Below, one piece after another: positions 24,766 to 49,057 of a DNA stretch of 64,000 nucleotides (the stretch's first letter is position 1; the number at the start of each line of letters is the position of its first letter). This stretch comes from Tautonia plasticadhaerens (lineage in GTDB: Bacteria > Planctomycetota > Planctomycetia > Isosphaerales > Isosphaeraceae): the NCBI RefSeq assembly GCF_007752535.1, contig NZ_CP036426.1:434001-498000 (forward strand), read 5' to 3'. A program made the translations under genes and the position numbers. The notes under the pieces are model-generated. The model was not told the DNA's origin. It was given only the letters and a program-made list of their open reading frames with translations, and ran no database searches.

Positions 24766-25273
24766 CGGGGCGATCGAGCGAGCCTCGTGTCGGCGTCTCG
24801 TCCCCGAGGCCCGACCCGGCGTGATCGATCGGCCGGGCATCCGTGCGCCCGGAGGTCCTCGTCGAGAAGTCGAGGCCGGTCGCTTGGCATCAGCCCGACT
24901 GCCGATCGATCGGTCCGCCTGACCCGGCCGCGTCCGGGGCCTCGGGAGGCATCGACTCGCCTCGGAGCGCTCCCCCCAGGTGCCCGACCGATCGGGCCCG
25001 GGTGCGACCCATCTCGGTGTCGACCCGGGCCGTCCTGGGGCACGGGCGGTGGCGTCGAGGGGCCGAGCACGACGATCGAGATCGCCCCAGCCATCACGTA
25101 GCCGTGGCCTCCTGCCGCGGCCGACGGCCGACCCGGCGCGTACCGCCGGGGTTGCGGCAGGCCAGCCATCCCAGGGATGCCCGCCCCAGGGCCGTCCCGG
25201 AATCCGCCCCGAGTCGCCTCGTCCGGGGCGATGGCGCCTCATCTCGCGATCTCATCTCATTGGGAGCATTCGG
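24766..25273. other. Intergenic region upstream of the first DUF1559 gene
   Basis: No gene is recognised in these 508 bases; frames on both strands are Arg/Pro/Ser-rich. It presumably holds the DUF1559 promoter, but no clear -35/-10 pair was found. Confidence 0.35.
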
Positions 25274-26404
25274 ATGAAGACACGATCCCATTCGTCGGGC
25301 GGGGGCTCCCGCCCGGCGTTTACGCTGATCGAGTTGCTGGTGGTCATCGCGATCATCGGCGTGCTCATCGCCCTGCTGCTGCCCGCCGTGCAATCGGCGA
25401 GGGAGGCGGCCAGGCGGGCGCAATGCACCAACAACCTGAAGCAGATCGGCCTGGCCCTGCACAACTACGAGTCGACCCACCGCTGCTTCCCCATGAGCAC
25501 CACCGCCGCCCTGCCCGGCCCCGGCGGGGCCTGCCAGAACGGCCTGGTGAGCTGGCACGCCCGGATCCTGCCGTTCCTGGAACACCGGGCGATTTCCGGG
25601 GCGATCAACTTCGACGTGGGCATGGCCGACGACTGCTCCGGCCCCCTGCTCTACTACGCGGCGACGATCGGCGCGGGGCACCCGAACGCCACGGCCGCCT
25701 CGGCGGTGATCTCGACGTACCTCTGCCCGTCCGACCCGGTCGGGCCCAGCGACGCGATGGGGTCCGCCCGGCCGGCGCCCGAGAACTACGCGGGGAACGT
25801 CGGCTGGATGCCCAACACGACCGGCTTTACCGGGTCGGGGGGCGGGCGGTCGACGCACAACGGACTGATCGGGCTGGACCGGCCGGGGGCGCCGGTGTCC
25901 TGGCACGACCCGGCGGTGTCCATGGCCGAGGTGTCCGACGGCCTGAGCACGACGGCGGCCGTGGCCGAGCGGCTGATCACCGAGGCGGCCGACCCGAGCG
26001 ATTGGCGCGCCGTGGCTTCCGGCCCGATGGCGACCCAGTCGTTCTGCGGCGGCGGGACGGGGGACTCCAAGTCGCTGTCCCGTTGGCAGCGCTTCTGCAA
26101 CGCGGTGTCGCTGCCGGATCCCGGCTGGTCGATCTATCACGGCCGGGCCTGGATCTCGGGGTGGGGGCACACGGCGGGGACGTACATGCACGTGATGAAG
26201 ATCGGCGAGCGGAATTGCCACCTCTACGGCGGCGAGGACACCGGCGAGATCATCGTCACGCCCAGCAGCAACCACGTCGGCGGCCTGAACGTGCTGTTCG
26301 GCGACGGCAGCGTCCGGTTCGTCAAGCAGTCGGTGTCCGACCAGATCTGGTGGTCGATCGGCTCGAGGAACGGCGGCGAGGTGGTCGATGCGTCCGGCCT
26401 CTGA
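25274..26404 (+). CDS. DUF1559 pseudopilin-like protein (copy 1)
   Basis: 376 residues. DUF1559 proteins are an expanded planctomycete family with a type IV pilin/type II secretion leader. Here [20 protein letters not shown] starts at about residue 15, with the prepilin cleavage Phe and Glu+5 intact. It is followed by [33 protein letters not shown] and, near the C-terminus, the H-x-GG motif ([19 protein letters not shown]). The middle part is variable and Gly/Ser-rich. The protein probably sits in the cell envelope; its role is not established. It overlaps nothing but is followed 16 bases later by a lipoprotein gene. Confidence 0.93.
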
Positions 26405-27709: not shown

Positions 27710-27749
27710 GGGCGAGGGAGGTGGCACTCGCACAACGCCCTTACGCCGA
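27701..27749 (+). terminator. Hairpin after the PEP-CTERM gene
   Basis: TCGGCGTAAGGGCG (27701-27714, containing the stop codon) pairs perfectly with CGCCCTTACGCCGA (27736-27749) over 14 bp with a 21-base loop. This is a likely end of the DUF1559-lipoprotein-PEP-CTERM transcript. Confidence 0.5.
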
Positions 27750-27888
27750 GGCCCGCGCACGAGCGTGGAGCATCGGTGACGCGAGGGCGGCGGGGCGGTC
27801 GGCAAACCGCCCCGTCGCCGGCACTATTCTACGGCCCCCCGGCCCCCAGGCCAGGGGGCGATCCCCCTCATCGCGTCCTCGGAGCATC

Positions 27889-28890
27889 ATGACCATGATC
27901 CCCCCTGCCCCTCGCCCCGGGAGGCGTCCCGGCTTCACCCTGATCGAATTACTCGTGGTCATCGCGATCATCGGCGTGCTGATCGCCCTGCTGCTGCCCG
28001 CCGTGCAGGCGGCGAGGGAGGCCGCGAGGAAGGCCCAGTGCATCAACAACCTGAAGCAGATCGGCCTGGGCCTGCACAATTACGAATCCAGCAACGGCAC
28101 CTTCCCCCCCGGCTGGACGGCCTACTTCGAGGAGGAGCACCACGACCACCACGACGACGACCACGGGTTCCGCTTCCAGGACGACGACGAGGCCCTGGCC
28201 GGCTGGCCGGGCTGGGCCTGGGGGAGCATGATCCTCGGCCAGGTGGAACAAGGTCCCCTCTATGACGCGATCAACTTCGACCTGTCGGTCGACTACCCGC
28301 AGAACCTGACCATCCGGACCAGCCGGGTGAAGTCGTACATCTGCCCGTCGGACGACGAGGTGCCTTTGGTCCCCGTCCGCGACGAGGGGGACGCGACGAC
28401 GATCACCGAGGTGAGCACGGGCAATTACATCGCCAGCAACGGGATCGGCGAGATCGGCCCGGAGGACGGCCAGGGGATTTTCTACATGAACAGCCGGACC
28501 CGGATCGCCGACATCCGGGACGGGACGAGCCAGACGCTCTGCGTGGGGGAGCGGAGCTTCAACCTCGCCCCGGTCACCTGGACCGCCCGCACCCCGCACG
28601 GCTGGAACTTCAAGACCCCCCCGAGCCGGGGGGGCGACGCGCGCTTCCAGTCGTTCCCGCACCCGGCCTTCAGCATGGTGATCGGGACGGTCGGCGTCGA
28701 GGACCCGCCCCGGACCCCCAACCACCCGAGGGCCCACCCGGAAGACTACTGGAGCCGGCACCCCGGCGGCGTGAATTTCCTGTTCGCCGACGGCTCGGTC
28801 CACTTCGTCCGCGACTCGATCGCGCAGGAGGTCTTCCTCGCCCTGGGGACCCGGAAGGGGCGTGAAGTCGTCTCGGCCGACCAGTATTGA
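27889..28890 (+). CDS. DUF1559 pseudopilin-like protein (copy 2)
   Basis: 333 residues with the prepilin leader [20 protein letters not shown] from about residue 14, then [20 protein letters not shown]. The C-terminal motif is present ([20 protein letters not shown]), ending in REVVSADQY. An unusual His/Asp-rich stretch ([14 protein letters not shown], about residues 83-96) could bind metal ions. The start at 27889 follows GGAG at short spacing. It is followed 100 bases later by a fused membrane/spermidine-synthase-like gene. Confidence 0.93.
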
Positions 28891-31405: not shown

Positions 31406-31813
31406 GCATCCGGGCGACGCGGTCGATCGGGCCGGGGTGCGGGGCCGATGGGGATCGGCCGGGGGGGCGGAGGCGAGGGGCGGGGGCGATCCGCCGGATC
31501 GGGGAGCGTCGTCCCCGGGTTCGCGGCATTTTTGCAAACAAAGGATTTGCGAGCGTGTCCCGGTCAAGTTATGCTAACCCCGCTCGGATAGGCCGCTCTT
31601 GCCTTCTCCCGCCGGCGTGATTCTCTCCCTCGACCGACGCCCGGCGCCCCGAGCCGTCCTGCCTCTCGGACGAATCGACCAACCCAGACTCCGAGCGACG
31701 GATTCGACCCCAATTCTTGCATGCGTTCTGCCGAGGGCGAGTGTCCGGTCGCCCGTGCGCATGCCGGTTCTGCTGGCGTCGTCGTACCCCTATCCCAGGA
31801 GAGAGTAAAGACC
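31406..31813. other. Intergenic region with promoter for DUF1559 copy 3
   Basis: This is GC-rich DNA with no gene recognised. A good sigma-70-like promoter is at 31547-31575, and a ribosome site (AGGAGAG) lies about 11 bases before the next start. Confidence 0.45.
31547..31575 (+). promoter_or_regulatory. Candidate sigma-70 promoter of DUF1559 copy 3
   Basis: TTGCGA (31547-31552) and TATGCT (31570-31575) are separated by exactly 17 bases, each matching four of six consensus positions, in an otherwise GC-rich region. The leader to the start codon would be about 230 bases. Confidence 0.4.
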
Positions 31814-32845
31814 ATGACATCTCGCATTCGCCGGGGCTTCACCCTGATCGAACTGCTCGTGGTCATCGCCATCATCGGCGTGCTGATCGCCCTGCTGCTG
31901 CCCGCCGTCCAGGCCGCCCGCGAGGCCGCCCGGCGCGCCCAGTGCACCAACAACCTGAAGCAACTCGGCCTGGCCGTGCACAACTACCACGACACCTGGG
32001 GCGGCTTCCCGATGGGCGAGATGCCCGGCGGGATGTCGCCCCACGTCGGGCTGCTGCCGTTCCTGGAGCAGACACAGATTTATGACTCGTTCAACATGAA
32101 CCTCGGCCAGCGCTGGATCTGGACCCAGCCGGCGACCCTGACCGTCGGCCGGACCAAGATCAGCGCCTACATCTGTCCGTCGGAAATCTACACCGAGTAC
32201 GCCAGCGACATCTACCAGTTCTACGCCTCCAACTACGCCTGGAACTCCGGGACGTGGTACCCGAGGACCGGGGCCTGGGACGGGCTGTTCGGCCGCTCGT
32301 ACGGGCCCAACAGCGTGCCCCCCGAGGCGACCATCGACGGCCTGCCGAACCGGCCCCTGAACAACATGACCTTCGCTTCGGCCAAGGACGGGACGAGCAA
32401 CACCCTGCTCTGCGCCGAGGTGGCCAACGGGCCGCTCGTCGCGGGCGTCACCCGGACCAAGGTCTCGGATTGCTTCGAGACCGGCGGCTTCAGCAACACG
32501 TCGACGGTGCAGGAGGCCGTGACGGCCTGCAACCAGGTCGACTGGACGACCGGCCCGATCCCCTGGGGCGGATCTTGGCGGTACAAGGGCTACTCCTGGG
32601 TCGAGGGGAGCGTCTGGCGGAACTGGTTCAACTCGATCCGGACGCCGAACCAGACCTGCTGCGTCAGCCTGCCGAACCAGTGGTGGTCGATCATGAAGCC
32701 GTCCTCGTCGTACCACCCCGGCGGCGCCAACGCCGTGATGGCCGACGGCAGCGTGAAGTTCTTCAAGGAGACGGTCGCGCTGAACACCTGGATGGCCCTG
32801 AGCACCCGGACCGGCGGCGAGGTCGTCAGCGCCGACCAGTACTGA
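31814..32845 (+). CDS. DUF1559 pseudopilin-like protein (copy 3)
   Basis: 343 residues with the shortest N-terminus of the three copies: MTSRIRR, then [19 protein letters not shown] and [20 protein letters not shown]. The body is richer in Tyr and Trp than copies 1 and 2 ([32 protein letters not shown]). The C-terminal motif is [20 protein letters not shown] and the end VVSADQY is identical to copy 2. It is led by its own promoter and followed by a 55-residue lipoprotein gene. Confidence 0.94.
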
Positions 32846-39130: not shown

Positions 39131-42100
39131 ATGAGGATCCGGCACGGTCGAGCCCGAGCAGTCGTCGCGTTGGCCCTGGTGGTGTCGGGGGCGCTCGCCG
39201 TCCTCGCCGGCCAGGGGGGGGAGGAGCGGGGGGGCGGGGCCGACCCGGGCCCGCCCCGGGTCCCGGAGGCGGGCCTGGCGGTCGAGCCGATCGCGCCGGA
39301 CCTGCCCGGCGGCGTCGTGGCGCGGCTCCAGGAGGGGAAGTACGCGGAGGCGGCCGAGGTGGTCGCCGCCTGGTCGCTCGAGGGGGAGGCCGACGGCGAT
39401 CGACGATCCTATGCCGCCCTGATCCGGGGGATCGCGCTGCGGCTGGACGGGAGGGCCGACCACGCCCGCGAGGCCCTTGCCTCCGCCCTAGACGCCGACC
39501 CCGAGGGGCGATGGTCCGCCAAGCTCCGCTCCGAGCTGGCCGCCACCGAGCTGCTCGCCGATCGCCCCGAGCAGGCCGAGGCGCTGGCGAGGGCCCAGGT
39601 GGAGACGCTGCTCGACCCGTCCCGCAAGGACGAGCTGGCCGGCGTCTATGTCGCCTTCGCCGACCGGCTGCTCGAGCCGGTCGGCCCGACCGCCCGGCCC
39701 GATCCCGAGGCCGCCCACGCGCTGCTGCAACAGGCGAGTGAGCTGGCGAAGGGGGACGAACTCCGGGCCCGGATCCGCCTCCGGATGGGACGGGCCAGCC
39801 GGGAGGCGGGCGACCCCGGCCGGGCGATCTCGGAGTTCCAGTCCTACCTCGACGAATTCCCCGGGGGGGCCGACCGCCCCCGCGCCCGCCTCCTCCTCGG
39901 CGAGGCCCAGCTCGAGGCCGGCCAGCCGTTACCGGCCCGGCTGACGTGGTCCGACCTGGCCCGGGACCTCGAGGCCGAACGGGACGGGCCGGCCGACATC
40001 CGGGCCGAGGCGTTGTTCCGGATCTCGGAGACGTACGGGTTCCCCCAGCCGGGGGACGACGCGAGCCTCGACCTGGGGATCGCCGCCCTGCGACGCTACC
40101 TGGACGCCTTCCCCGCCCACGAGGACGCCGTGCGGGCCTCCTACTGGATCGGCGCCGCGAGCCTGCACCGCGGGCAGAGCCAGCGGGCGCTGGAGGCGTT
40201 CCGCGCCTTCCTCGCCGAGGAGCCCTTCCGGGCCGAGTCCGAGGCGGCGAGGCGGGACCTGGCCGAGCTTCGGATGGACGTGGCCTTCCAGGTCGGCGTG
40301 GTGCTCCGCCAGCAGGGCCGATTCGCCGAGGCGATCGAGGCGTTCCGGGGCTACCTCGCCCAGTACCCCGACGGCCCCCAGTCGGCCGACGCCCAGCGCG
40401 AGATCCTGAACACGCAACTGGTCTCGGCCGGCGAACACCTCCGGAGGGAACGCCACGACGAGGCCCGGGACGCCTGGCGCCGGTTCGTCTCCGAGAACCC
40501 GCTCGACCCGAGGGTGCCGGAGCTGCTGTTCCAGGTCGGCGAGAGTTTCGCCTCCCAGGACCGGTTCGACGAGGCGATCGCGAGCTGGGAAACCCTGATC
40601 GGCAAGTTCCCCGGCACGGAGCCGGCCGGTCACGCCCAGTTCCGCATCGGCGAGGTGCTGGAAACGGAGCGGGACCAGCCGGGGCAGGCGATCGAGCGCT
40701 TCGAGCGAGTGGCCGTCGAGCCCTGGCAATCCCGGGCCCGGCAGCGGATCGCGGTGATGGAGTCGACCGAGCTGACCGTCATCTCCCCCCGGGCGTTCCG
40801 GACGGGCGAGGTCCCGAGGCTGGAGATCACGACCCGGAACGTCGAGACGCTCACCTTCCGCTCTTACAGGCTCGATCCCGAGTCCTACTTCCGGAAGAAG
40901 CAGCGGCTCGGCGGCGTGGAGTCGCTCGACGTCGGCCTGGTGGCCCCGGATGCCGAGTGGACGGTCGAGGTGGCCGGCTATGCGAAGTACGCGCCGATCG
41001 AGCGTGCGTATGAGCTGGACCGGGTGCCCGTGCCGGGGGTCCACGTGGTGAAGGTCAGCGACGAGGAGAAGCTCCAGGCGACCACCCTGGTGGTCGGCAG
41101 TGACCTGGACGCGATCGTGAAGACGTCCCGCGACCAGTTGCTCGTCTTCGCGCAGGACATGACCGACGGCTCGGGACGGTCGGGGACCCGGGTGCTGGCG
41201 TCGGGGGGCGATGGGATCCTCCTGGAGGGGCAGGGGGGGGAGGACGGCGTCCTCCTGGCGAGCTGGCCGGAGCCGATCGAGCCGGGTTCGGGGCTGTCGT
41301 ACCTGATCATCGACGGCGCCCACGTCGCCGGGACGGGGCTGGGGGTGCCGGATCGGGTGGCCCAGGGGCTCGAGGCCCGGGCGTACCTCTACACCGACCG
41401 GCCCGCCTACCGGCCGGGACAGGAGGTGGAGCTTCGAGGGGTCGTCCGGGAGGTGGTCGACGGGCGCTACGCGCACGCCCCGGGGGCGACCTACCGGCTG
41501 GAGGTGGTGGACAGCCGGGGCCGCCGGATCCTTGAGAAGTCGGTGACGCTCTCGGACTTCGGCACCTTCCATGACACCGTCCCGGTCGACTCGTCGGCCC
41601 CGGTCGGGACCTACCAGGTGCGGCTGTACCAGCCGGGCAAGGACGGCTTCTCCGGCTCGTTCGAGGTCCAGGCGTACCGGCTCCAGAAGGTGGACCTGGC
41701 CATCGACCTCCCCCGGTCCGTCTACTTCCGCGGGGAGACGGTGGAGGGGAAGGCCGTCGCCCGCTATCAGTACGGGGCGCCGCTGTCGGGGAGGCCGATC
41801 GTCGTCGACCTGCCGGACGGGCGGACGCTCTCGGGGGAGATGGACGAGGCCGGCGAATATGAATTCTCGTTCGAGACGACGGGGTTCGGCGAGGAGCAGC
41901 CGCTCCGGATCGTCGCCCAGCTCCCCCAGGAGGGCGTGGCCGCCGTCTCCTCGACGATGCTGGCCGTCCGGGCCTTCCGGGTCGACCTGTCGACCCCGAG
42001 GGACGTGTATCTCGACGGCGAGCCGTTCCGCCTGACCGCCCGGACGATCGACGCCCTCGGCGAGCCGACCGGCCAGCCGCTGGAGGTGGCGATCCTCAGG

Positions 42101-45100
42101 CGCGTCAGCCGACAGGGGACCATCGCGGAACTCGAGGTCGACTCGAAGGATCTGACGACCGACGGCCAGTCCGGCGAGGGGTCCGTGCCCGTCACCATCG
42201 ACGACGACGAGGGGGGGACCTATGTCCTGCGCGCCTCGGCGACCGACCGCTTCGGCAACCCGATCGTCGCCGAGCGGGTGCTGACCGTCTCCGGCTCGGA
42301 GGACGCCCAGAAGCTCCGAATCCTGGCCGATTCGCTGGCCTTCAAGGTGGGCGAGCAGGCGCAGGTGAACCTCCACAACCGCTCCGGGGGGGGCCCGGCC
42401 CTGCTGACCTGGGAGGCCGATCGGATCCTCTCCTACCGGATCGTCGCGCTGGAGGAGGGCGACAACCCGGTCCGATGGGAGGCCGACGACGCCCAGTTCC
42501 CGAACGTCACCCTGGCCGCCTCCCGGATGGCCGGGACGGACTTCCACCGGGCCCAGGTCGACCTCACCCTGACTCGGGATCTCCGGGTGACGGTCGAGCC
42601 CGCCCGGGAGTCCGTCGGCCCCGGCGAGGAGGTGGAGGTGGTGATCCGGGCCGCCGACCAGCTCGGCCGGCCGGCCCGGGCGGAGGTGTCGCTGGCGCTG
42701 GTCGACCGGGCGCTCCTGCGGCTCTACGGCGACGACCTCCCCCCTATCGGCCCGTTCTTCCACGGCCAGGCCCGCACCGGCGCCTTCGCCACCGAGGCGA
42801 CCAACACCTTCCGATACGCCCCGAGCACCGAGACGATCGCCGAGGCCCTGCTCGACGAGCGGGAGCGGCAGGTGCTCGCCGCGCTCACCGATGCCGACCA
42901 GGACGCCGTCCGGGAGCGGGCCGACGCCATCACGATCCCCCAGGACTTCGCGATGCCGGGCCAGGCCCAGGCGGGACAGCCCCAGGTCCCCCCCGCACCG
43001 GCAATGGCCGGGGCCATGATGGGAGAGATGGGGGGCATGGCCGGCGGCCGAGGGGGGATGGTCGAGGCGAACGAGGCCGTCCCCGCCCTCGAGGGGACCG
43101 AGTACGACGTCGGCCTCCATTTCTCCATGCCCGGTCGCGACCGGGCCGCGCTGGCCAACGATCGGCAGGAGCTGTACCGCCGCAAGGTTGCGGCGTACGA
43201 GGGGTTCGATGACGGGCCATCGGGCGCGGTGATGTTGGGCGTCGGTGCCACGGAATTCGGGGGCCTGGCGGGCGGCGCGGTCTCGGCCCCGGCGACCCGC
43301 GAGCAGTATGTCGAGACGGCCTACTGGAACCCGGCGATCGTGACGGGAGAGGACGGCACCGCCCGGGTCACGATCAAGGCCCCGACGGCCCTCTCGCGCT
43401 ATCGGTTCACGGCCCGGGGCGTCACCGGGGCCGACACGCTGGCGGGCCAGACGACGGCCGACCTGATGGTGTCGCAGGACTTCTTCGTCGAGCTTCGCAC
43501 GCCGAGCATGCTCACCGAGGGGGACAAGCCCCGGTTCCTCGCCCGGGTGCACCACACCGGCGTGAAGGGACGCATCGAGGTCCGCCTGGCCTCCTATGCG
43601 ACCGGCAACGAGCAGGCCGACCCGAAGGTGATCGAGGTCGATCGGGACGGCGTGACCGAGGTCCTGTTCGACCCGTTCGAGGTCCCGGACGCGACCGAGG
43701 TCGAGCTCACCCTGTCCGCCCGGGCCGGTGACCGGGCCGACGAGATCCGGGCGACCGTCCCCGTCCGCCCCTGGGGGGTTCGGGCGATCGCCTCGGGCTC
43801 GGGGGCCAGCAGCGACGACGCCACGGTTTTCGTCGAGCTGCCGGGGGGGCGACGGTACGAGTCCCCCGAGATGCTGATCACCCTCTCGCCGTCGACCCGT
43901 CGACTCCTGATCGAGCTGGCGCTGGGACAGCAGGCCTGGCCCGCGGCGGACCAGCCCGATGCCGGCACGATGTTCCGCGTCTGCTTCCCGCAGCCGAGCA
44001 CGGTGGCCGACCGGGCCTCGGACCTCCTCGCGGCGACGTCGGCGCTGGTCTATCTCCGCAGGGTGGGCGGAGCCGAGGCCCCGGAGGCCCCGCGGCTGAC
44101 GGGCCGGATCCGGGGGCTCGTGGCCGAACTCATCTCGATGCAGAACGACGACGGCGGCTGGCCCTGGGTGCCGAGCCGGCCGAAGTCGCCGCAACCGAGC
44201 GAGCGGTTGACCTCGTCCTACGCCCTCTGGGCCCTCGACTCGGCCGAGCCGCTGGGGCTGTTGAGCGACCCGTCCGTCGCCGACCGGGCCACGGGCTGGA
44301 TCGAACAGCAGTTCGCCCAGGTCGACCCCACCGACCGGGACACCCGGGCCGCCCTGCTCTTCGCGCTCAGCACCCGGGGGCGGGCCGGCTTCGAGCAGGC
44401 GAACCGGCTGAACCGGGACCGGCAGCAGCTCTCCAACCCGGCGCTCGCGTTCCTGGCGCTCACGTTCGCGAACCTCGATCGGTCGAGCCTGGCGGCCGAG
44501 GTCCTCGGCGTGCTCGGGCCGAGGTCGGAGGCCGGGGCCTCGGCCCCGGGCGGCCCGGTGCTCCGCCACTGGGAGGCCGACTCGCGTCATCCCTTCTTCC
44601 GGGGGACGGCCGAGGTCACCGCGCTGGCGAGCCTCGCCTACTCGGCGGGCCTCCCCGCCGCCCCCGAGCTGGGGCAGTCCGCCGAGTGGCTGCTGGCCCA
44701 CCGGATCGGCCTCGACTGGAGGCCCCACAAGGCGAAGGGGCCGGCCCTGGCGGCGCTGGGCCGATATTTCGGCGGGGCCGACGCGGCCGAGGACGATTAT
44801 CGGCTGGTCGTCACGGTGAACGACCAGGAGGTCCACCGCGCCGAGATCTCCGGCCGGTCCGAGGGGGAGGCGATCCGGGTCCCCCGCAAGGCGATCGACG
44901 GCACCGGGCGGAACCGGGTCCGGTTCGACATCGAGGGGAGGGGGACGTTCGGCTACTCGGTCACCCTCGCCGGATTCACCCGGGAGTTCGGGCCGGACCA
45001 GGACCGGCGGGACCGGTCGTTCTTCGTCGATCGGCGGGCCTACCTCGCCGCCGAGCCCGAGTTCGAGGGCCGACCGCTGCCGACGGGGTTCTCGGCGGCC

Positions 45101-47335
45101 GTGAACCCCCAGGCGTTCCGGAACGAGGTCTCCCAGGTCGCGCTCGGCGGCCGGGCCCGGGTGGAGGTCTCGGCCAGCCGGGTCCATCGGTCGGGCGAGC
45201 CGAGCTGGGAGCGGGACTTCCTCGTCCTGGAGGAGCCGTTGCCGGCCGGGGCCACGCTCGTCGAGGGCTCGGTGCAGACGTCCGCCTCGCACTTCGAGGT
45301 GCGGGACGGCGTCCTCACCCTGTACTTCGCCCCCGACCAGGACCCCGGCAGCTCCTCCTACGAGGTCTTCGGCCATCTGCCCGGCGACTACCGGGCCCTG
45401 CCCCCGATCCTGCGCAGCGCCTACGAGCCCGGCCGCGACCACCTGGGCATGCCGGCCGACCTGACCGTGCTCGAACCCGGCGAGGACTCCACGGACCCGT
45501 ATCGGCCCACGCCCGACGAGCTGTTCGCCCGGGGCTCCGCCCTGTTCGACCGGGGGCGGTTCGCCGAGGCGGCCGAGGTCCTCGGCTCGCTCTGGGAGGG
45601 CTATTCCCTCCGGGACGACGTGGCCCGGGACGCCGCCCGGATGCTCCTGAAGGCGCACATCGCGCTGGGCAACCCCCGGCCGGTCGTCCAGTTCTTCGAG
45701 ATCCTCCGGGAGCGGGCCCCAGACGAGGTGATCCCGTTCGGCGAGATCCTCGCCGTCGGCTCCTCCTACCGCGACATCGGCGAATCCGAGCGGGCCTACC
45801 TCGTCTGGAGGGCCACGGCGGAGGCGAGCTACCTGGAGGACGCCCGGGTCGGCGAGGTGCTCCGGCAACGCGGGATGCCCCTTGAGGCGGTGGCGTACCT
45901 GCTGGACCTCTGGCGCGAGTACCCCGACACCGCGTCGATCGAGAGCGACTTCTTCGGCCTCTCCCAGGTGCTCGCCGGGCTGGCCGTCGAGGCCCAGGGC
46001 GACCCGGGGATCCGGAGGACGCTGCTCGACGCCGACCTCTCGCCGCCCCGGTTGCTCCTGCAGTCGATCCGACTGATCCAGGTCTTCCTCGCGCGGTCGC
46101 CCGACAACCCGATCGCCGACGAGGCGAGCCTGGCGCTCGTCAATGCGTACCTGGATCTGGAGGACGACGAGACCGTCGTCTCGCTGGCCGAGCGGTTCGC
46201 CGGGCTCTACGGGTCGAGCGACTACCTCGACAGCTTCCGCTATTCGGAAGCCCTCGGCCGATTCCGCCTCGGGCAATACGACCGGGCGATCGCCGTGGCG
46301 GAGACGATCGCGGGCGCGACCTATCGCGACGACTCCGGCGCCGAAGTGCCCAGCCCGAACCGGTGGCAGGCCCTCTACATCCTGGGGCAGATCTACCACG
46401 CCCGACGGGACGCCCGGAAGGCCGTCTCGTACTACGAGCAGGTCGCCGACCGCTTCACCGACGCCGCCGGCGCCGTCCGGCAGCTCACCCGGGAGGAGCT
46501 GGCGCTGCCCGAGATTACCCTGATCCGCCCCTCCGACCTCCTTCGGCTCGCGGCCCACGGCGAGGAGCCGATCCTCGCCTCGCTCGGCGCCGACGCCGCC
46601 CGGCCCGCCGAGGGGCCGACCGTGCCGCTGGAGTCCCGCAACATCGAGGAGGCCGCCGTCACCGTCTACCCGGTCGACCTGATGCGTCTCTACCTCACAC
46701 GGCGCAACCTGGATGACATCGCCGGCATCGACCTGGCGGGCATCTCGCCGCTGGTCGAGACGGCCGTCTCGCTGGGGGACGGCTCCGACTTCGACGCGAA
46801 GGAGACGCCCGTCCCGCTGCCGATCGAATCGGAGGGCGCGTATCTCGTCATGGTCCGAGGGGATGGACGGTACGCCTCGGGGATCGCGCTGGTCAGCCCG
46901 CTGGAGCTGGACGTGCTGGAGGAGCCCGACGCCGGCCGGGTCCGGGTGACCGTCCGCCTCGCCGAGACCGGGGAGCTGGTGCCCGGCGTGCAGGTCCGGG
47001 TGATCGGCACGGAGGACGAGCGGTTCGTGAGCGGCGAGACCGACCTGAGGGGCGTCTTCGTGGCCGACGGCATCCGGGGCCAGGTCACCGCCGTCGCCCG
47101 GCGGGATGCCGACCAGTACGCCTTCTACCGGGGCACCGGCTACGTCGGGGCCCCGCCCGAGGCACCCCGGACGCCCGAGGCGTCCCAGGTGGCCCCGGCC
47201 GAGGGGCAGGTGGAGCAGTCCCTGGAGCAGAACCTGCGCGAATTGAACCGGGCGAACCAGCTCCGGCAGATCGATCGGCTGGAGCGTCGCTACCAGGAGG
47301 GCGGCAAGGGCGTGCAGGTGGACAAGGCCTACTGA
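39131..47335 (+). CDS. Giant alpha-2-macroglobulin family protein with TPR arrays at both ends
   Basis: 2734 residues, far longer than usual bacterial alpha-2-macroglobulins (about 1600). Layout: signal peptide (1-27); N-terminal tetratricopeptide region (about 60-537, repeats such as AISEFQSYLDEFPGG and AIEAFRGYLAQYPDGPQSAD); macroglobulin domains from about 547, including the MG2-type TDRPAYRPGQEVELRG (about 750); a Met/Gly/Pro-rich linker (about 1274-1313); the A2M region WNPAIVTGEDGTARVTI (about 1399); and a thioester-type toroid domain (about 1610-1930, QNDDGGWPWV). Then follow a second TPR array (about 2129-2457), a carboxypeptidase-regulatory-like fold (about 2604-2660) and a terminal coil. 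The thioester motif C-x-E-Q reads CFPQ (Cys1618, Gln1621). Family members trap proteases in the periplasm. S10 and M28 peptidase genes follow. Confidence 0.92.
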   Translation: MRIRHGRARAVVALALVVSGALAVLAGQGGEERGGGADPGPPRVPEAGLAVEPIAPDLPGGVVARLQEGKYAEAAEVVAAWSLEGEADGDRRSYAALIRGIALRLDGRADHAREALASALDADPEGRWSAKLRSELAATELLADRPEQAEALARAQVETLLDPSRKDELAGVYVAFADRLLEPVGPTARPDPEAAHALLQQASELAKGDELRARIRLRMGRASREAGDPGRAISEFQSYLDEFPGGADRPRARLLLGEAQLEAGQPLPARLTWSDLARDLEAERDGPADIRAEALFRISETYGFPQPGDDASLDLGIAALRRYLDAFPAHEDAVRASYWIGAASLHRGQSQRALEAFRAFLAEEPFRAESEAARRDLAELRMDVAFQVGVVLRQQGRFAEAIEAFRGYLAQYPDGPQSADAQREILNTQLVSAGEHLRRERHDEARDAWRRFVSENPLDPRVPELLFQVGESFASQDRFDEAIASWETLIGKFPGTEPAGHAQFRIGEVLETERDQPGQAIERFERVAVEPWQSRARQRIAVMESTELTVISPRAFRTGEVPRLEITTRNVETLTFRSYRLDPESYFRKKQRLGGVESLDVGLVAPDAEWTVEVAGYAKYAPIERAYELDRVPVPGVHVVKVSDEEKLQATTLVVGSDLDAIVKTSRDQLLVFAQDMTDGSGRSGTRVLASGGDGILLEGQGGEDGVLLASWPEPIEPGSGLSYLIIDGAHVAGTGLGVPDRVAQGLEARAYLYTDRPAYRPGQEVELRGVVREVVDGRYAHAPGATYRLEVVDSRGRRILEKSVTLSDFGTFHDTVPVDSSAPVGTYQVRLYQPGKDGFSGSFEVQAYRLQKVDLAIDLPRSVYFRGETVEGKAVARYQYGAPLSGRPIVVDLPDGRTLSGEMDEAGEYEFSFETTGFGEEQPLRIVAQLPQEGVAAVSSTMLAVRAFRVDLSTPRDVYLDGEPFRLTARTIDALGEPTGQPLEVAILRRVSRQGTIAELEVDSKDLTTDGQSGEGSVPVTIDDDEGGTYVLRASATDRFGNPIVAERVLTVSGSEDAQKLRILADSLAFKVGEQAQVNLHNRSGGGPALLTWEADRILSYRIVALEEGDNPVRWEADDAQFPNVTLAASRMAGTDFHRAQVDLTLTRDLRVTVEPARESVGPGEEVEVVIRAADQLGRPARAEVSLALVDRALLRLYGDDLPPIGPFFHGQARTGAFATEATNTFRYAPSTETIAEALLDERERQVLAALTDADQDAVRERADAITIPQDFAMPGQAQAGQPQVPPAPAMAGAMMGEMGGMAGGRGGMVEANEAVPALEGTEYDVGLHFSMPGRDRAALANDRQELYRRKVAAYEGFDDGPSGAVMLGVGATEFGGLAGGAVSAPATREQYVETAYWNPAIVTGEDGTARVTIKAPTALSRYRFTARGVTGADTLAGQTTADLMVSQDFFVELRTPSMLTEGDKPRFLARVHHTGVKGRIEVRLASYATGNEQADPKVIEVDRDGVTEVLFDPFEVPDATEVELTLSARAGDRADEIRATVPVRPWGVRAIASGSGASSDDATVFVELPGGRRYESPEMLITLSPSTRRLLIELALGQQAWPAADQPDAGTMFRVCFPQPSTVADRASDLLAATSALVYLRRVGGAEAPEAPRLTGRIRGLVAELISMQNDDGGWPWVPSRPKSPQPSERLTSSYALWALDSAEPLGLLSDPSVADRATGWIEQQFAQVDPTDRDTRAALLFALSTRGRAGFEQANRLNRDRQQLSNPALAFLALTFANLDRSSLAAEVLGVLGPRSEAGASAPGGPVLRHWEADSRHPFFRGTAEVTALASLAYSAGLPAAPELGQSAEWLLAHRIGLDWRPHKAKGPALAALGRYFGGADAAEDDYRLVVTVNDQEVHRAEISGRSEGEAIRVPRKAIDGTGRNRVRFDIEGRGTFGYSVTLAGFTREFGPDQDRRDRSFFVDRRAYLAAEPEFEGRPLPTGFSAAVNPQAFRNEVSQVALGGRARVEVSASRVHRSGEPSWERDFLVLEEPLPAGATLVEGSVQTSASHFEVRDGVLTLYFAPDQDPGSSSYEVFGHLPGDYRALPPILRSAYEPGRDHLGMPADLTVLEPGEDSTDPYRPTPDELFARGSALFDRGRFAEAAEVLGSLWEGYSLRDDVARDAARMLLKAHIALGNPRPVVQFFEILRERAPDEVIPFGEILAVGSSYRDIGESERAYLVWRATAEASYLEDARVGEVLRQRGMPLEAVAYLLDLWREYPDTASIESDFFGLSQVLAGLAVEAQGDPGIRRTLLDADLSPPRLLLQSIRLIQVFLARSPDNPIADEASLALVNAYLDLEDDETVVSLAERFAGLYGSSDYLDSFRYSEALGRFRLGQYDRAIAVAETIAGATYRDDSGAEVPSPNRWQALYILGQIYHARRDARKAVSYYEQVADRFTDAAGAVRQLTREELALPEITLIRPSDLLRLAAHGEEPILASLGADAARPAEGPTVPLESRNIEEAAVTVYPVDLMRLYLTRRNLDDIAGIDLAGISPLVETAVSLGDGSDFDAKETPVPLPIESEGAYLVMVRGDGRYASGIALVSPLELDVLEEPDAGRVRVTVRLAETGELVPGVQVRVIGTEDERFVSGETDLRGVFVADGIRGQVTAVARRDADQYAFYRGTGYVGAPPEAPRTPEASQVAPAEGQVEQSLEQNLRELNRANQLRQIDRLERRYQEGGKGVQVDKAY

Positions 47336-47344
47336 TCCGCCGAT

Positions 47345-47374
47345 CGGGCCGGCGTGCCTCGGCACGCCGGCCCG
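47345..47374 (+). terminator. Hairpin terminator after the macroglobulin gene
   Basis: A perfect 14-bp inverted repeat (CGGGCCGGCGTGCC and its complement) lies 10 bases after the stop codon. The loop is only 2 bases as written, so the apical pairs must open. No T-run follows. Confidence 0.65.
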
Positions 47375-47482
47375 GACTTGACCCGGTCGCATCGGCATGC
47401 CATCGTTGGTCCGACTGTCGGCCCCGCGCCCCGCGTCGGGCCTCCGACCGGGATTCCCTGCCGATTGCGCGAAGGGCTCGAC

Positions 47483-49057
47483 ATGCGGCGATTCCTCCTC
47501 CCCTGGATCGGCATCCTCCTCCTGCACCAGCCCCCTCCGGTGGCCTCCCAGGGATCCCCCGATCCGGCGAGCGGAGGAACCGTGGCCGAGGACGAGAAGA
47601 CGCCCGCCAGCGAGGGACCCGGGGCAGGCGAGGAGGAGGAGGAACCGGAAATCGAGCCGACCGTCACGCACCACACGCTCGAACTCGACGGGCGGACGCT
47701 CATCTATACGGCCACCGTCGGCACGCTGCCGATCAAGGACGAGCGGGGGGAGGAGACGGGGGAAGTCTTCTACGTGGCCTACACGCTCGACGGCGTGGAG
47801 GATCGGGAGTCCCGCCCGCTGATGTTCTCCTTCAACGGCGGCCCGGGCTCGTCGTCGGTCTGGCTGCACCTGGGGGCCCTCGGGCCGAAGCGGGTGCCGA
47901 TGCCCGACGACGCCACCATCCCGGCCCCGCCCTACCGGCTCGTCCCCAACGAGCAGACCTGGCTGACGGAGGCGGACCTCGTCTTCGTCGACCCGATCGG
48001 CACCGGCTTCAGCCGGGCGGCCGAGCCGGAGAAGGAGGGGGGATTCTTCAACCTCCGGGGCGACATCGCCTCGGTCGGCGAATTCATCCGGCTCTTCATC
48101 ACGCGCAATCGGCGGTGGACCTCGCCGCTATTCGTGGTCGGGGAGAGCTACGGGACGACCCGGGCGGCGGGGCTCTCGGAATACCTGGTCGACCGGGGGA
48201 TCGCCCTCAACGGCGTGATCCTCGTCTCCTCGGTCCTCAACTTCCAGACGGTCCGATTCGGGGACGGCAACGACCTGCCCTACATCCTGTTCCTGCCGAC
48301 CTACGCCGCGACCGCCCGGTTCCACGGGCGGTTGCCCGAGGCGTCGCAGGACCTGCCGCTGGCCGAGTTCCTCGACGAGGTCGAGGCCTGGGCCTCCGGC
48401 CCGTATGCGAGGGCCCTCCAGATGGGAGACCTCCTCTCGGACCGGGAGCGGGCCGACGTGCTCGATCGCCTCGCCGGCTACACCGGGCTCTCCCCGGAGT
48501 ACCTGGAGGACGCCGGCCTCCGGATCGAGATCCAGCGGTTCTGCAAGGAACTCCTGCGCGACCGGGGCCGGACCGTCGGCCGGCTCGACAGCCGGTTCAA
48601 GGGGATCGACGCCTCCCCCGCCGGCGACACCCCCTCCTTCGACCCGAGCATGGCCGCCATCCGTCCCCCATATACCAGCACACTGAACCAGTACCTGAAT
48701 GCCGATCTGGGATACGAGTCGGACGTGCCCTACTACATCCTTGGCGAGGGCGTCCGCGGCTGGGACTACGGCGTTTCCGGGGCCGGGGGCTACGCCGACA
48801 CCGCCTCGGCCTTGCGAGACGCGCTGGCGAAGAATCCCCACATGAAGATCCTGGTCGCATCCGGGTACTATGACCTGGCCACGCCCTACGCCGCCACGGA
48901 ATACACCCTGTCCCACATGGGCCTCGATCCGGAGCTGCGGGACAATTTCCGGGTCGAGGAGTACGAGTCCGGGCATATGATGTACATCCACGAGCCGTCG
49001 CTGGAGGCGTTGAAGGGGCACGTTTCGAGCTTCATCGGCGAGGCCGACGGGCTCTGA
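47483..49057 (+). CDS. S10 family serine carboxypeptidase
   Basis: 524 residues. S10 peptidases remove C-terminal amino acids, usually outside the cytoplasm. A signal peptide (MRRFLLPWIGILLLHQPPPV) is followed by an acidic linker. Family motifs are FSFNGGPGSSSVWLHLG (oxyanion region), FVDPIGTGFSRA and the nucleophile GESYGTTRA (Ser222); the Asp is in ASGYYDLATP and the His in ESGHMMYIHEP near the C-terminus. The triad is complete. GAAGGG lies 6 bases before the ATG. It follows the macroglobulin gene by 147 bases and precedes an M28 peptidase gene. Confidence 0.93.
   Translation: MRRFLLPWIGILLLHQPPPVASQGSPDPASGGTVAEDEKTPASEGPGAGEEEEEPEIEPTVTHHTLELDGRTLIYTATVGTLPIKDERGEETGEVFYVAYTLDGVEDRESRPLMFSFNGGPGSSSVWLHLGALGPKRVPMPDDATIPAPPYRLVPNEQTWLTEADLVFVDPIGTGFSRAAEPEKEGGFFNLRGDIASVGEFIRLFITRNRRWTSPLFVVGESYGTTRAAGLSEYLVDRGIALNGVILVSSVLNFQTVRFGDGNDLPYILFLPTYAATARFHGRLPEASQDLPLAEFLDEVEAWASGPYARALQMGDLLSDRERADVLDRLAGYTGLSPEYLEDAGLRIEIQRFCKELLRDRGRTVGRLDSRFKGIDASPAGDTPSFDPSMAAIRPPYTSTLNQYLNADLGYESDVPYYILGEGVRGWDYGVSGAGGYADTASALRDALAKNPHMKILVASGYYDLATPYAATEYTLSHMGLDPELRDNFRVEEYESGHMMYIHEPSLEALKGHVSSFIGEADGL

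What the first reader, a model, noticed from the sequence alone, without database searches (positions are those of the whole stretch)
39131..47335. Alpha-2-macroglobulin with TPR arrays at both ends and an altered thioester motif
Seen: 2734 residues, TPR-type repeats before and after the macroglobulin body, a Met/Gly/Pro-rich linker, and a toroid domain with QNDDGGWPW. Known: bacterial macroglobulins trap proteases, many through a Cys-x-Glu-Gln thioester. Here the position reads CFPQ (Cys1618, Gln1621), so the bond-forming Cys and Gln are kept but the Glu is Pro. Inference: either the thioester still forms in a novel context, or the protein has become a scaffold that uses its TPR arms to hold partners.
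Basis: partly seen in the sequence, partly recalled or inferred. Interest (0 to 1): 0.7.

Follow-up and report, generated by a model that had tools for sequence, protein, structure and literature searches.

The report
Thioester-less macroglobulin between TPR arms
A giant, probably secreted planctomycete protein of the family that traps protein-cutting enzymes has lost the usual chemical hook of that family, and the apparent altered hook is not conserved, although most relatives still keep one unexplained cysteine beside the old site.

Summary
Window 39131-47335 (+) encodes a 2734-residue alpha-2-macroglobulin (A2M) with TPR arms at both ends and CFPQ at 1618-1621. CFPQ is not an altered thioester. 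Of 103 distinct family loops 9 carry CxEQ, and only 3 of the other 94 carry C..Q; the same genus reads CFPQ, CFPT, CLPP, CLPP. Aligned with thioester-bearing relatives, CFPQ lies downstream of the thioester site. Nine deeper members of the same TPR-flanked family keep GCxEQ. A tree puts 69 thioester-less rows behind one branch (SH-aLRT 99), which fits one old loss; the MG8 motifs that shield a thioester are degenerate in this clade. New points: (1) the TPR+NIE-MG1 module is duplicated at the two ends (HHalign 99.75%); (2) the hypervariable Met/Gly-rich linker sits where A2Ms carry the bait region; (3) the Cys recurs without the Gln: 62 of 94 thioester-less loops, and 41 of 60 full rows against 2.0 expected. 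Preferred mechanism: a secreted, non-covalent, bait-triggered trap, as shown for MagD, with the TPR arms for assembly or docking. That function is inferred. Kinship with the CAGE megadalton shell is a speculative alternative that could not be tested.

The parts
39131..39211 (+). probable signal peptide (residues 1-27, AxA-type; not a lipoprotein, since the only Cys of the protein is 1618)
   Evidence: sequence; Cys count; judged by eye, no predictor run
39308..40765 (+). N-terminal TPR arm, residues 60-545
   Evidence: Pfam TPR families; NCBIfam tol_pal_ybgF over its cut-off; model m535ac583ed9a helical to residue 544; VIA-align to LGN TPR Z 17.8, 302 aligned, rmsd 9.5
40766..41365 (+). NIE-MG1-like beta pair, residues 546-745
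   Evidence: VIA-align to E. coli A2M NIE-MG1 (4zjh) Z 14.4, 190 aligned, rmsd 3.1, residues 539-738
41366..42835 (+). MG2 to first part of MG6, residues 746-1235
   Evidence: Pfam MG2 and A2M_BRD; VIA-align to the C3 beta chain (8cem_E) Z 18.1, 524 aligned, rmsd 5.7; single MG boundaries not determined
42842..43312 (+). hypervariable Met/Gly/Ala-rich linker in the bait-region position, residues 1238-1394 (mostly not modelled)
   Evidence: mean identity to relatives 18% over 1262-1385; length 96-366, median 187, in 60 rows; lies between A2M_BRD and the A2M (PF00207) domain
43313..43894 (+). rest of MG6, MG7 and first part of CUB, residues 1395-1588
   Evidence: Pfam A2M 1396-1475; VIA-align to human A2ML1 Z 29.0, 590 aligned, rmsd 3.5
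43895..44782 (+). alpha/alpha toroid (TED), residues 1589-1884
   Evidence: hhalign of the family region to thioester A2Ms: probability 100, E 1.7e-58; helices 1589-1880 in model ma1bbbee248ea
43940..44002 (+). variable loop that stands beside or in place of the thioester (1604-1624), pLDDT about 49-63
   Evidence: mean identity 16% against 39% and 48% in the flanks
43982..43993 (+). CFPQ, residues 1618-1621: Cys recurrent in relatives, Gln not
44783..45484 (+). rest of CUB and MG8 (CTMG), residues 1885-2118, with degenerate RDxR and MY thioester-shielding motifs
   Evidence: VIA-align rows span model residues 11-732
45512..46555 (+). C-terminal TPR-like arm, residues 2128-2475
   Evidence: model helices 745-1092; hhalign to N-terminal TPR arm 98.1%; TPR_8 match 2413-2438
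46610..47200 (+). second NIE-MG1-like beta pair, residues 2494-2690
   Evidence: hhalign to the N-terminal pair: 98.76%, E 1.3e-16; whole TPR+pair module 99.75%, E 3.3e-27; profile of either pair also hits the other copy in deep relatives; Pfam bMG3 2603-2665, E 1.1e-4, below the curated cut-off

Best explanation
It is a secreted (periplasmic/paryphoplasmic) alpha-2-macroglobulin whose lineage lost the thioester long ago. Most likely it works as a physical, non-covalent trap or clamp. The long linker inside MG6 is the cleavable trigger; cutting it lets the TED/CUB/MG8 arm and the MG ring close round the attacker and hold it without a covalent bond, as MagD holds its protease. The two duplicated TPR+NIE-MG1 arms then help as the covalent hook did before: they hold partners, the envelope or a second subunit so that the trapped enzyme cannot leave. 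Shown here: the A2M fold and domain order, the absence of a conserved thioester, decay of its shielding motifs in this clade, the duplicated end modules and the recurrent loop Cys. Inferred: secretion, disorder and bait function of the linker, trapping, and the role of the arms. The lone Cys is probably a free thiol or an inter-subunit disulfide rather than half of a thioester.
For: Fold and order: hhalign 100%, E 1.7e-58 to thioester A2Ms over MG7-CUB-TED; VIA Z 29.0, rmsd 3.5, 590 aligned to human A2ML1 and Z 28.5, rmsd 3.3, 587 aligned to C5, which is an exception without the thioester (passage of PMC9156758); C3 MG chain and NIE-MG1 matched. No thioester; tree (69 rows without CxEQ behind one branch, SH-aLRT 99; sister group 9 of 11 with CxEQ). 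Shielding motifs: Arg2058 17 of 19 classical, 9 of 9 CxEQ-bearing TPR members, 9 of 69 here; Met2097 18 of 19, 7 of 9, 0 of 69. Linker position and variability; in A2Ms the bait region is part of an insert in MG6 (passage of PMC9156758; MG8 in bacterial numbering, PMC4498604). Non-covalent trapping without CXEQ is shown for MagD (PMC5764988: abstract, introduction and one results section). The frame is open in the listed relatives, and the gene is the only PF00207 locus found in its genome.
Against: No protease, partner or assembly state is shown. The linker is far longer (median 187) than the 32-residue predicted bait region of A2ML1. Neighbouring genes are not conserved: no mag-like operon seen, and the downstream S10 peptidase gene is absent at the A2M locus of Tautonia sociabilis L067. 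TPR arms fit a scaffold or chaperone role equally well. Thioester loss could mean loss of trapping. Loss of CxEQ does not always bring loss of the shielding motifs: the classical row L052 lacks CxEQ yet keeps RDDR and MY.
Confidence: 0.45

Rival explanations
1. It has left protease trapping altogether and is an envelope scaffold or chaperone-like container: TPR arms and MG ring hold client proteins, and the linker is only a flexible hinge.
For: The N-terminal repeats resemble periplasmic YbgF/CpoB and BamD repeats; both end modules are duplicated and conserved, also in thioester-bearing members; thioester and shielding motifs gone; no conserved protease or operon neighbour found.
Against: A linker of at least 96 residues in the bait position is kept in all 60 rows examined, and the MG7-CUB-TED-MG8 part is kept with high structural similarity; a pure scaffold need not keep them.
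Confidence: 0.3
2. The thioester still forms between Cys1618 and Gln1621 in a new context.
For: Cys and Gln have the right spacing; loop Cys is strongly enriched; CFPQ recurs once more, in L042 of another genus of the same family-rank group.
Against: Gln is Thr or Pro in same-genus relatives; C..Q in 3 of 94 non-CxEQ loops; CFPQ falls in an insertion relative to GCxEQ, and hhalign also puts it downstream of the thioester; RDxR and MY shielding motifs lost in the clade; the loop is low confidence in the model, pLDDT about 49-63; Pro precedes the Gln.
Confidence: 0.03
3. The recurrent loop Cys is a working residue: an inter-subunit disulfide or thiol that replaces the thioester as the covalent element (can be true together with the trap or the scaffold reading).
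For: 41 of 60 rows against 2.0 expected; 6 of 8 single-Cys rows have it in the loop; spacing of 12-17 residues to the helix Asp in 41 of 42 rows, 9 in the other; kept although the loop is only 16% identical.
Against: Absent in 25 of 69 rows with 15 changes on the tree, so it is not essential; related rows are not independent; no co-varying partner residue in the output I could see.
Confidence: 0.25

Closest known systems
Type II bacterial A2M (MagD of Pseudomonas aeruginosa; E. coli YfaS recalled)
   Same: lacks CXEQ, keeps a linker in the bait position, Gram-negative envelope protein
   Different: TPR+NIE-MG1 arms at both ends, no mag operon seen; here the loss lies inside a TPR-flanked family that still has CxEQ members. 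MagD and YfaS sequences were not compared here.
Type I bacterial A2M (E. coli YfhM/ECAM, Salmonella A2M)
   Same: NIE-MG1, MG domains, BRD, MG7, CUB-TED, MG8 in the same order
   Different: no CxEQ, no lipobox Cys, extra TPR arms, second NIE-MG1 at the C-terminus, long linker
Complement C5
   Same: A2M fold without the thioester; among the best structural matches
   Different: no TPR arms; anaphylatoxin in place of the bait
Thioester-bearing TPR-flanked planctomycete A2Ms (L149-L155, L157, L159)
   Same: both TPR arms and both NIE-MG1 copies found in 8 of 9; the L149 locus holds only the C-terminal part
   Different: intact GCxEQ and mostly intact RDxR/MY motifs
CAGE complex (Tetrahymena, Dictyostelium; PMC12485934)
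   Same: long helical N-terminal part, six beta domains, two of them with A2M as top match, a beta domain split by a helical one, then beta, helical, beta; homologs most prevalent in Planctomycetota and Verrucomicrobiota, bacterial ones mostly with signal peptides
   Different: its authors found no Pfam domain and recognised no thioester domain; 2,216 aa; no sequence or coordinates could be compared here

Membership tests
alpha-2-macroglobulin superfamily | MG2, BRD and A2M (PF00207) domains in order | tested here: met
   Pfam over curated cut-offs
alpha-2-macroglobulin superfamily | alpha/alpha TED inserted in CUB, followed by MG8 | tested here: met
   hhalign 100%, E 1.7e-58; VIA Z 29.0, rmsd 3.5, 590 aligned
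alpha-2-macroglobulin superfamily | CxEQ thioester (with known exceptions such as C5) | tested here: not met
   0 of 60 core rows; 9 of 103 distinct loops, all in the sister group. As exceptions are known, superfamily membership stands.
Type I bacterial A2M (YfhM-like) | CXEQ motif | tested here: not met
Type I bacterial A2M (YfhM-like) | pbpC next to the gene (in a number of bacteria) | tested here: not met
   none of the 9 neighbouring proteins scanned is a penicillin-binding protein by Pfam
Type II bacterial A2M (MagD-like) | no CXEQ but a bait region | tested here: inconclusive
   no CxEQ; linker in the bait position but cleavage untested
Type II bacterial A2M (MagD-like) | encoded in the six-gene mag operon | tested here: inconclusive
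   neighbours are peptidases, kinase-like, glycosyltransferases and others; MagA/B/C/E/F were not searched for by sequence
Type II bacterial A2M (MagD-like) | non-covalent protease trapping | not testable with these tools
   needs purified protein
CAGE complex protein | sequence or fold homology to Tetrahymena CAGE1 / Dictyostelium AbpF | tested here: inconclusive
   CAGE not seen in the 60 of 152 rows shown, the 52 rows or the listed fold matches; its structures may not be in these copies
CAGE complex protein | hollow D2 homotetramer | not testable with these tools
   no multimer prediction offered

The most novel reading that the evidence does not exclude
The TPR-flanked, thioester-less planctomycete macroglobulins and the enigmatic CAGE shell are one family: CAGE would be a macroglobulin that lost its thioester and became a closed homotetrameric container, and the window protein would form such a cage in the planctomycete envelope, with the MG6 linker and the lone Cys at its interior or seams.
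Probability: 0.15. Interest if true: 0.85.

Novelty: new variant of a known kind. Interest (0 to 1): 0.5.

Why it matters
It documents a widespread planctomycete macroglobulin architecture (TPR+NIE-MG1 modules at both ends) that I did not find described in the held library. Within one family both thioester-bearing and thioester-less members exist, so the step from covalent to non-covalent capture can be studied in relatives of one design. The recurrent orphan cysteine is a concrete, testable puzzle. If the CAGE link holds, it would give that orphan megadalton complex an ancestry and a candidate function.

Tried and rejected
Rejected: an altered but working thioester (see rival 2). Rejected: conserved partner genes. 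Nine window neighbours were searched in the flanks of the 74 named loci: only L067 (Tautonia sociabilis) shows the same neighbourhood, there with the M28 gene next to the A2M gene and no S10 match; single neighbours matched in L072, L077, L084, L101 and L107 at other places. All-against-all of flank ORFs (ORFs of both strands, real or not; the 25 largest clusters listed) gave at most 14 of 74 loci per cluster, the largest made up mainly of Isosphaeraceae-type loci; a few clusters of five or six loci span wider groups, but at scattered distances. Rejected as artefacts: in-frame extension to 35768 and the antisense ORF 39929-47869.

Led nowhere: a scan for residues co-varying with the loop Cys; no phylogeny-corrected association reached significance in the part of the output shown, which was cut. 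Two counts of loop Cys in a larger set were wrong because the extracted segment often missed the TED; one search replaces them. Cys-Gln distance was not measured: no coordinate file was found and the loop is low confidence. CAGE was not seen among the PDB sequence or fold matches shown; this excludes nothing.

Limits: the 59 relatives aligned are those of the 74 loci whose ORF covers the middle and most of the C-terminal part; near-copies (for example L072/L077, L089/L090) were kept. The expectation of 2.0 assumes random, independent placement. The tree is a quick one; L147, L148, L143, L144 and L101 are long branches. In its labels L060 and L061 were marked as lacking CxEQ by too narrow a pattern; one search shows CSEQ in both, so I do not use its overall count of changes; the 69-row and 11-row groups are not affected. 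Most of the deep loci L140-L159 are cut at the N-terminus of the gene by the fetched region. hhalign E-values are for a single pair.

Full report
Observation. The ORF at 39131-47335 (+) gives 2734 residues with one cysteine, Cys1618, in CFPQ. The start is supported by codon-position GC and by the short open frame of same-genus L004. Pfam finds MG2, A2M_BRD, A2M and TPRs; NCBIfam scores the N-terminal repeats as YbgF-like over its cut-off. The genome (G000, 99.34% complete) shows a single PF00207 locus, this one.

Family. Of 59 genomes searched with the protein, 52 have a match at E <= 0.001, which includes classical A2Ms and TPR proteins. Within the same family-rank group 35 of 37 genomes including the own one have a match; G012 and G022 have none, and G009 shows only fragments of this gene plus a classical A2M. 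The scan of named genomes kept 74 loci of 218 confirmed stretches, mostly Planctomycetota (Tautonia, Singulisphaera, Aquisphaera, Paludisphaera, Rhodopirellula, Stieleria and MAGs), with a Verrucomicrobiota, two Poribacteria and a 'Deltaproteobacteria' MAG. Across 119 phylum genomes, 64 match the profile of 1384-2580 at E <= 1e-40; matches that stop before the C-terminal arm are probably classical A2Ms.

The motif. In the first alignment the same-genus rows read CFPQ, CFPT, CLPP and CLPP, and other rows have a Cys elsewhere or none. None of 60 rows has C.EQ; the loop is 16% identical on average against 39% and 48% in its flanks. In 103 distinct loops 9 have CxEQ; of the other 94, 62 contain a Cys and 3 have C..Q: the window, L042 (also CFPQ) and L105. 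Thioester-bearing rows align GCxEQ about ten residues before CFPQ, with CFPQ in a gap of theirs; hhalign uses a slightly different register but also puts CFPQ downstream. Loop alignment is uncertain, but neither reading gives a conserved Cys-Gln pair.

History. Nine deep members (L149-L155, L157, L159) carry GCxEQ. Separate profiles of the two arms and the two beta pairs hit both ends in 8 of these 9; the L149 locus holds only the C-terminal part, with its arm and pair. Pfam best stretches show the N-terminal TPRs in L153 and the C-terminal ones in L151. On a tree of 99 rows built without the loop columns, 69 thioester-less rows lie behind one branch (SH-aLRT 99); the 11-row sister group has 9 with CxEQ, and L156 and L158 show separate decay. 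With classical CxEQ proteins as outgroup this fits one old loss in the window's lineage (parsimony; one outgroup row, the long-branched L059, lay on the wrong side). The MG8 motifs that in Salmonella and E. coli A2M contact TED and bait (RDDR and EXMY; passages of PMC4498604) are mostly kept in CxEQ proteins and lost in this clade: Arg2058 17 of 19 classical rows, 9 of 9 CxEQ-bearing TPR members, 9 of 69 thioester-less; Met2097 18 of 19, 7 of 9, 0 of 69. Against a tight link: L052 and L053, classical rows without CxEQ, keep MY, and L052 also keeps RDDR.

Orphan cysteine. The loop has a Cys in 41 of 60 rows where random placement gives 2.0, 20 times the density elsewhere; of 8 rows with a single Cys, 6 have it here, and the loop windows rank first in a sliding count. 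It sits 12-17 residues before the helix Asp in 41 of 42 rows. On the tree 44 of 69 rows have it, with 15 changes; 200 shuffles averaged 20.4, minimum 16. So it is often kept but dispensable. Gln at +3 occurs in 2 of 42. No partner residue was found.

Architecture. Two AlphaFold2 models cover 36-1230 (pLDDT 90.0) and 1384-2580 (87.6); 1231-1383 and the last 154 residues were not modelled. The second matches A2ML1 with VIA Z 29.0, rmsd 3.5, 590 aligned, tied with TEP1 and C5. The first matches Salmonella A2M Z 21.4 with rmsd 16.0 over 622, a loose multi-domain fit, the C3 beta chain Z 18.1, rmsd 5.7, 524 aligned, and E. coli NIE-MG1 Z 14.4, rmsd 3.1, 190 aligned. The C-terminal TPR plus beta pair is a copy of the N-terminal one (hhalign 99.75%, E 3.3e-27, 362 columns; beta pairs alone 98.76%); in the deep relatives the N-terminal pair's profile also hits the C-terminal pair, down to E 8.8e-27. 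The linker 1238-1394 lies inside MG6, where A2Ms carry the bait region (passage of PMC9156758); it is 96-366 residues long, richer in Gly, Ala and Met, not in Pro, and poorer in Tyr, Trp, Ile and Cys than the whole. Its disorder is inferred.

Function. MagD traps a protease without CXEQ (PMC5764988: abstract, introduction and one results section read). That is the nearest tested precedent; no mag-like operon was seen here. I commit to a bait-triggered non-covalent trap with docking or assembly arms at 0.45, a scaffold or container at 0.30.

CAGE. PMC12485934 (abstract, results, discussion, one methods section and data availability read, other parts as passages) describes a hollow homotetramer with A2M-like beta domains and homologs most prevalent in Planctomycetota and Verrucomicrobiota. 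The resemblance in the order of helical and beta parts is my own reading and untested: no CAGE sequence or coordinates were at hand, and its authors' Pfam search of CAGE1 found nothing, unlike this protein.

Literature. Searches for macroglobulin with planctomycetes, tetratricopeptide, Isosphaera, Rhodopirellula and CAGE listed no paper, by title and abstract, on TPR-flanked macroglobulins; CAGE was the one relevant paper. The library lacks most subscription journals.

Noticed in passing
window 47354-49057: An S10 serine carboxypeptidase ORF starts 18 bases after the A2M stop; at the A2M locus of Tautonia sociabilis (L067) no S10 match was found and the M28 peptidase gene follows directly, so it looks like a local insertion.
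   Followed up: partly
L151:3354-10499 (-), residues 971-1001 of the translation: A TPR_2 match lies inside the linker region between A2M_BRD and A2M of a thioester-bearing relative, an odd content for a bait region.
   Followed up: no
L156 and L158: Members of the thioester-bearing sister group whose GCxEQ has decayed (GGGVAG and GGGLET in the alignment), apparently separate losses.
   Followed up: partly
L052 and L053: Classical A2Ms in which the thioester site reads HKTTD instead of GCTEQ while the MY motif of MG8 is kept: another thioester loss, outside this family.
   Followed up: partly
window 24980-26404, 27721-28890, 31721-32845: Three ORFs with a prepilin-like [25 protein letters not shown] stretch near the start, common in planctomycetes (recalled), lie upstream.
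   Followed up: no
L100, L122, L125: MAG records titled Candidatus Kuenenia stuttgartiensis carry members 40-42% identical in the best segment; titles may reflect binning.
   Followed up: no
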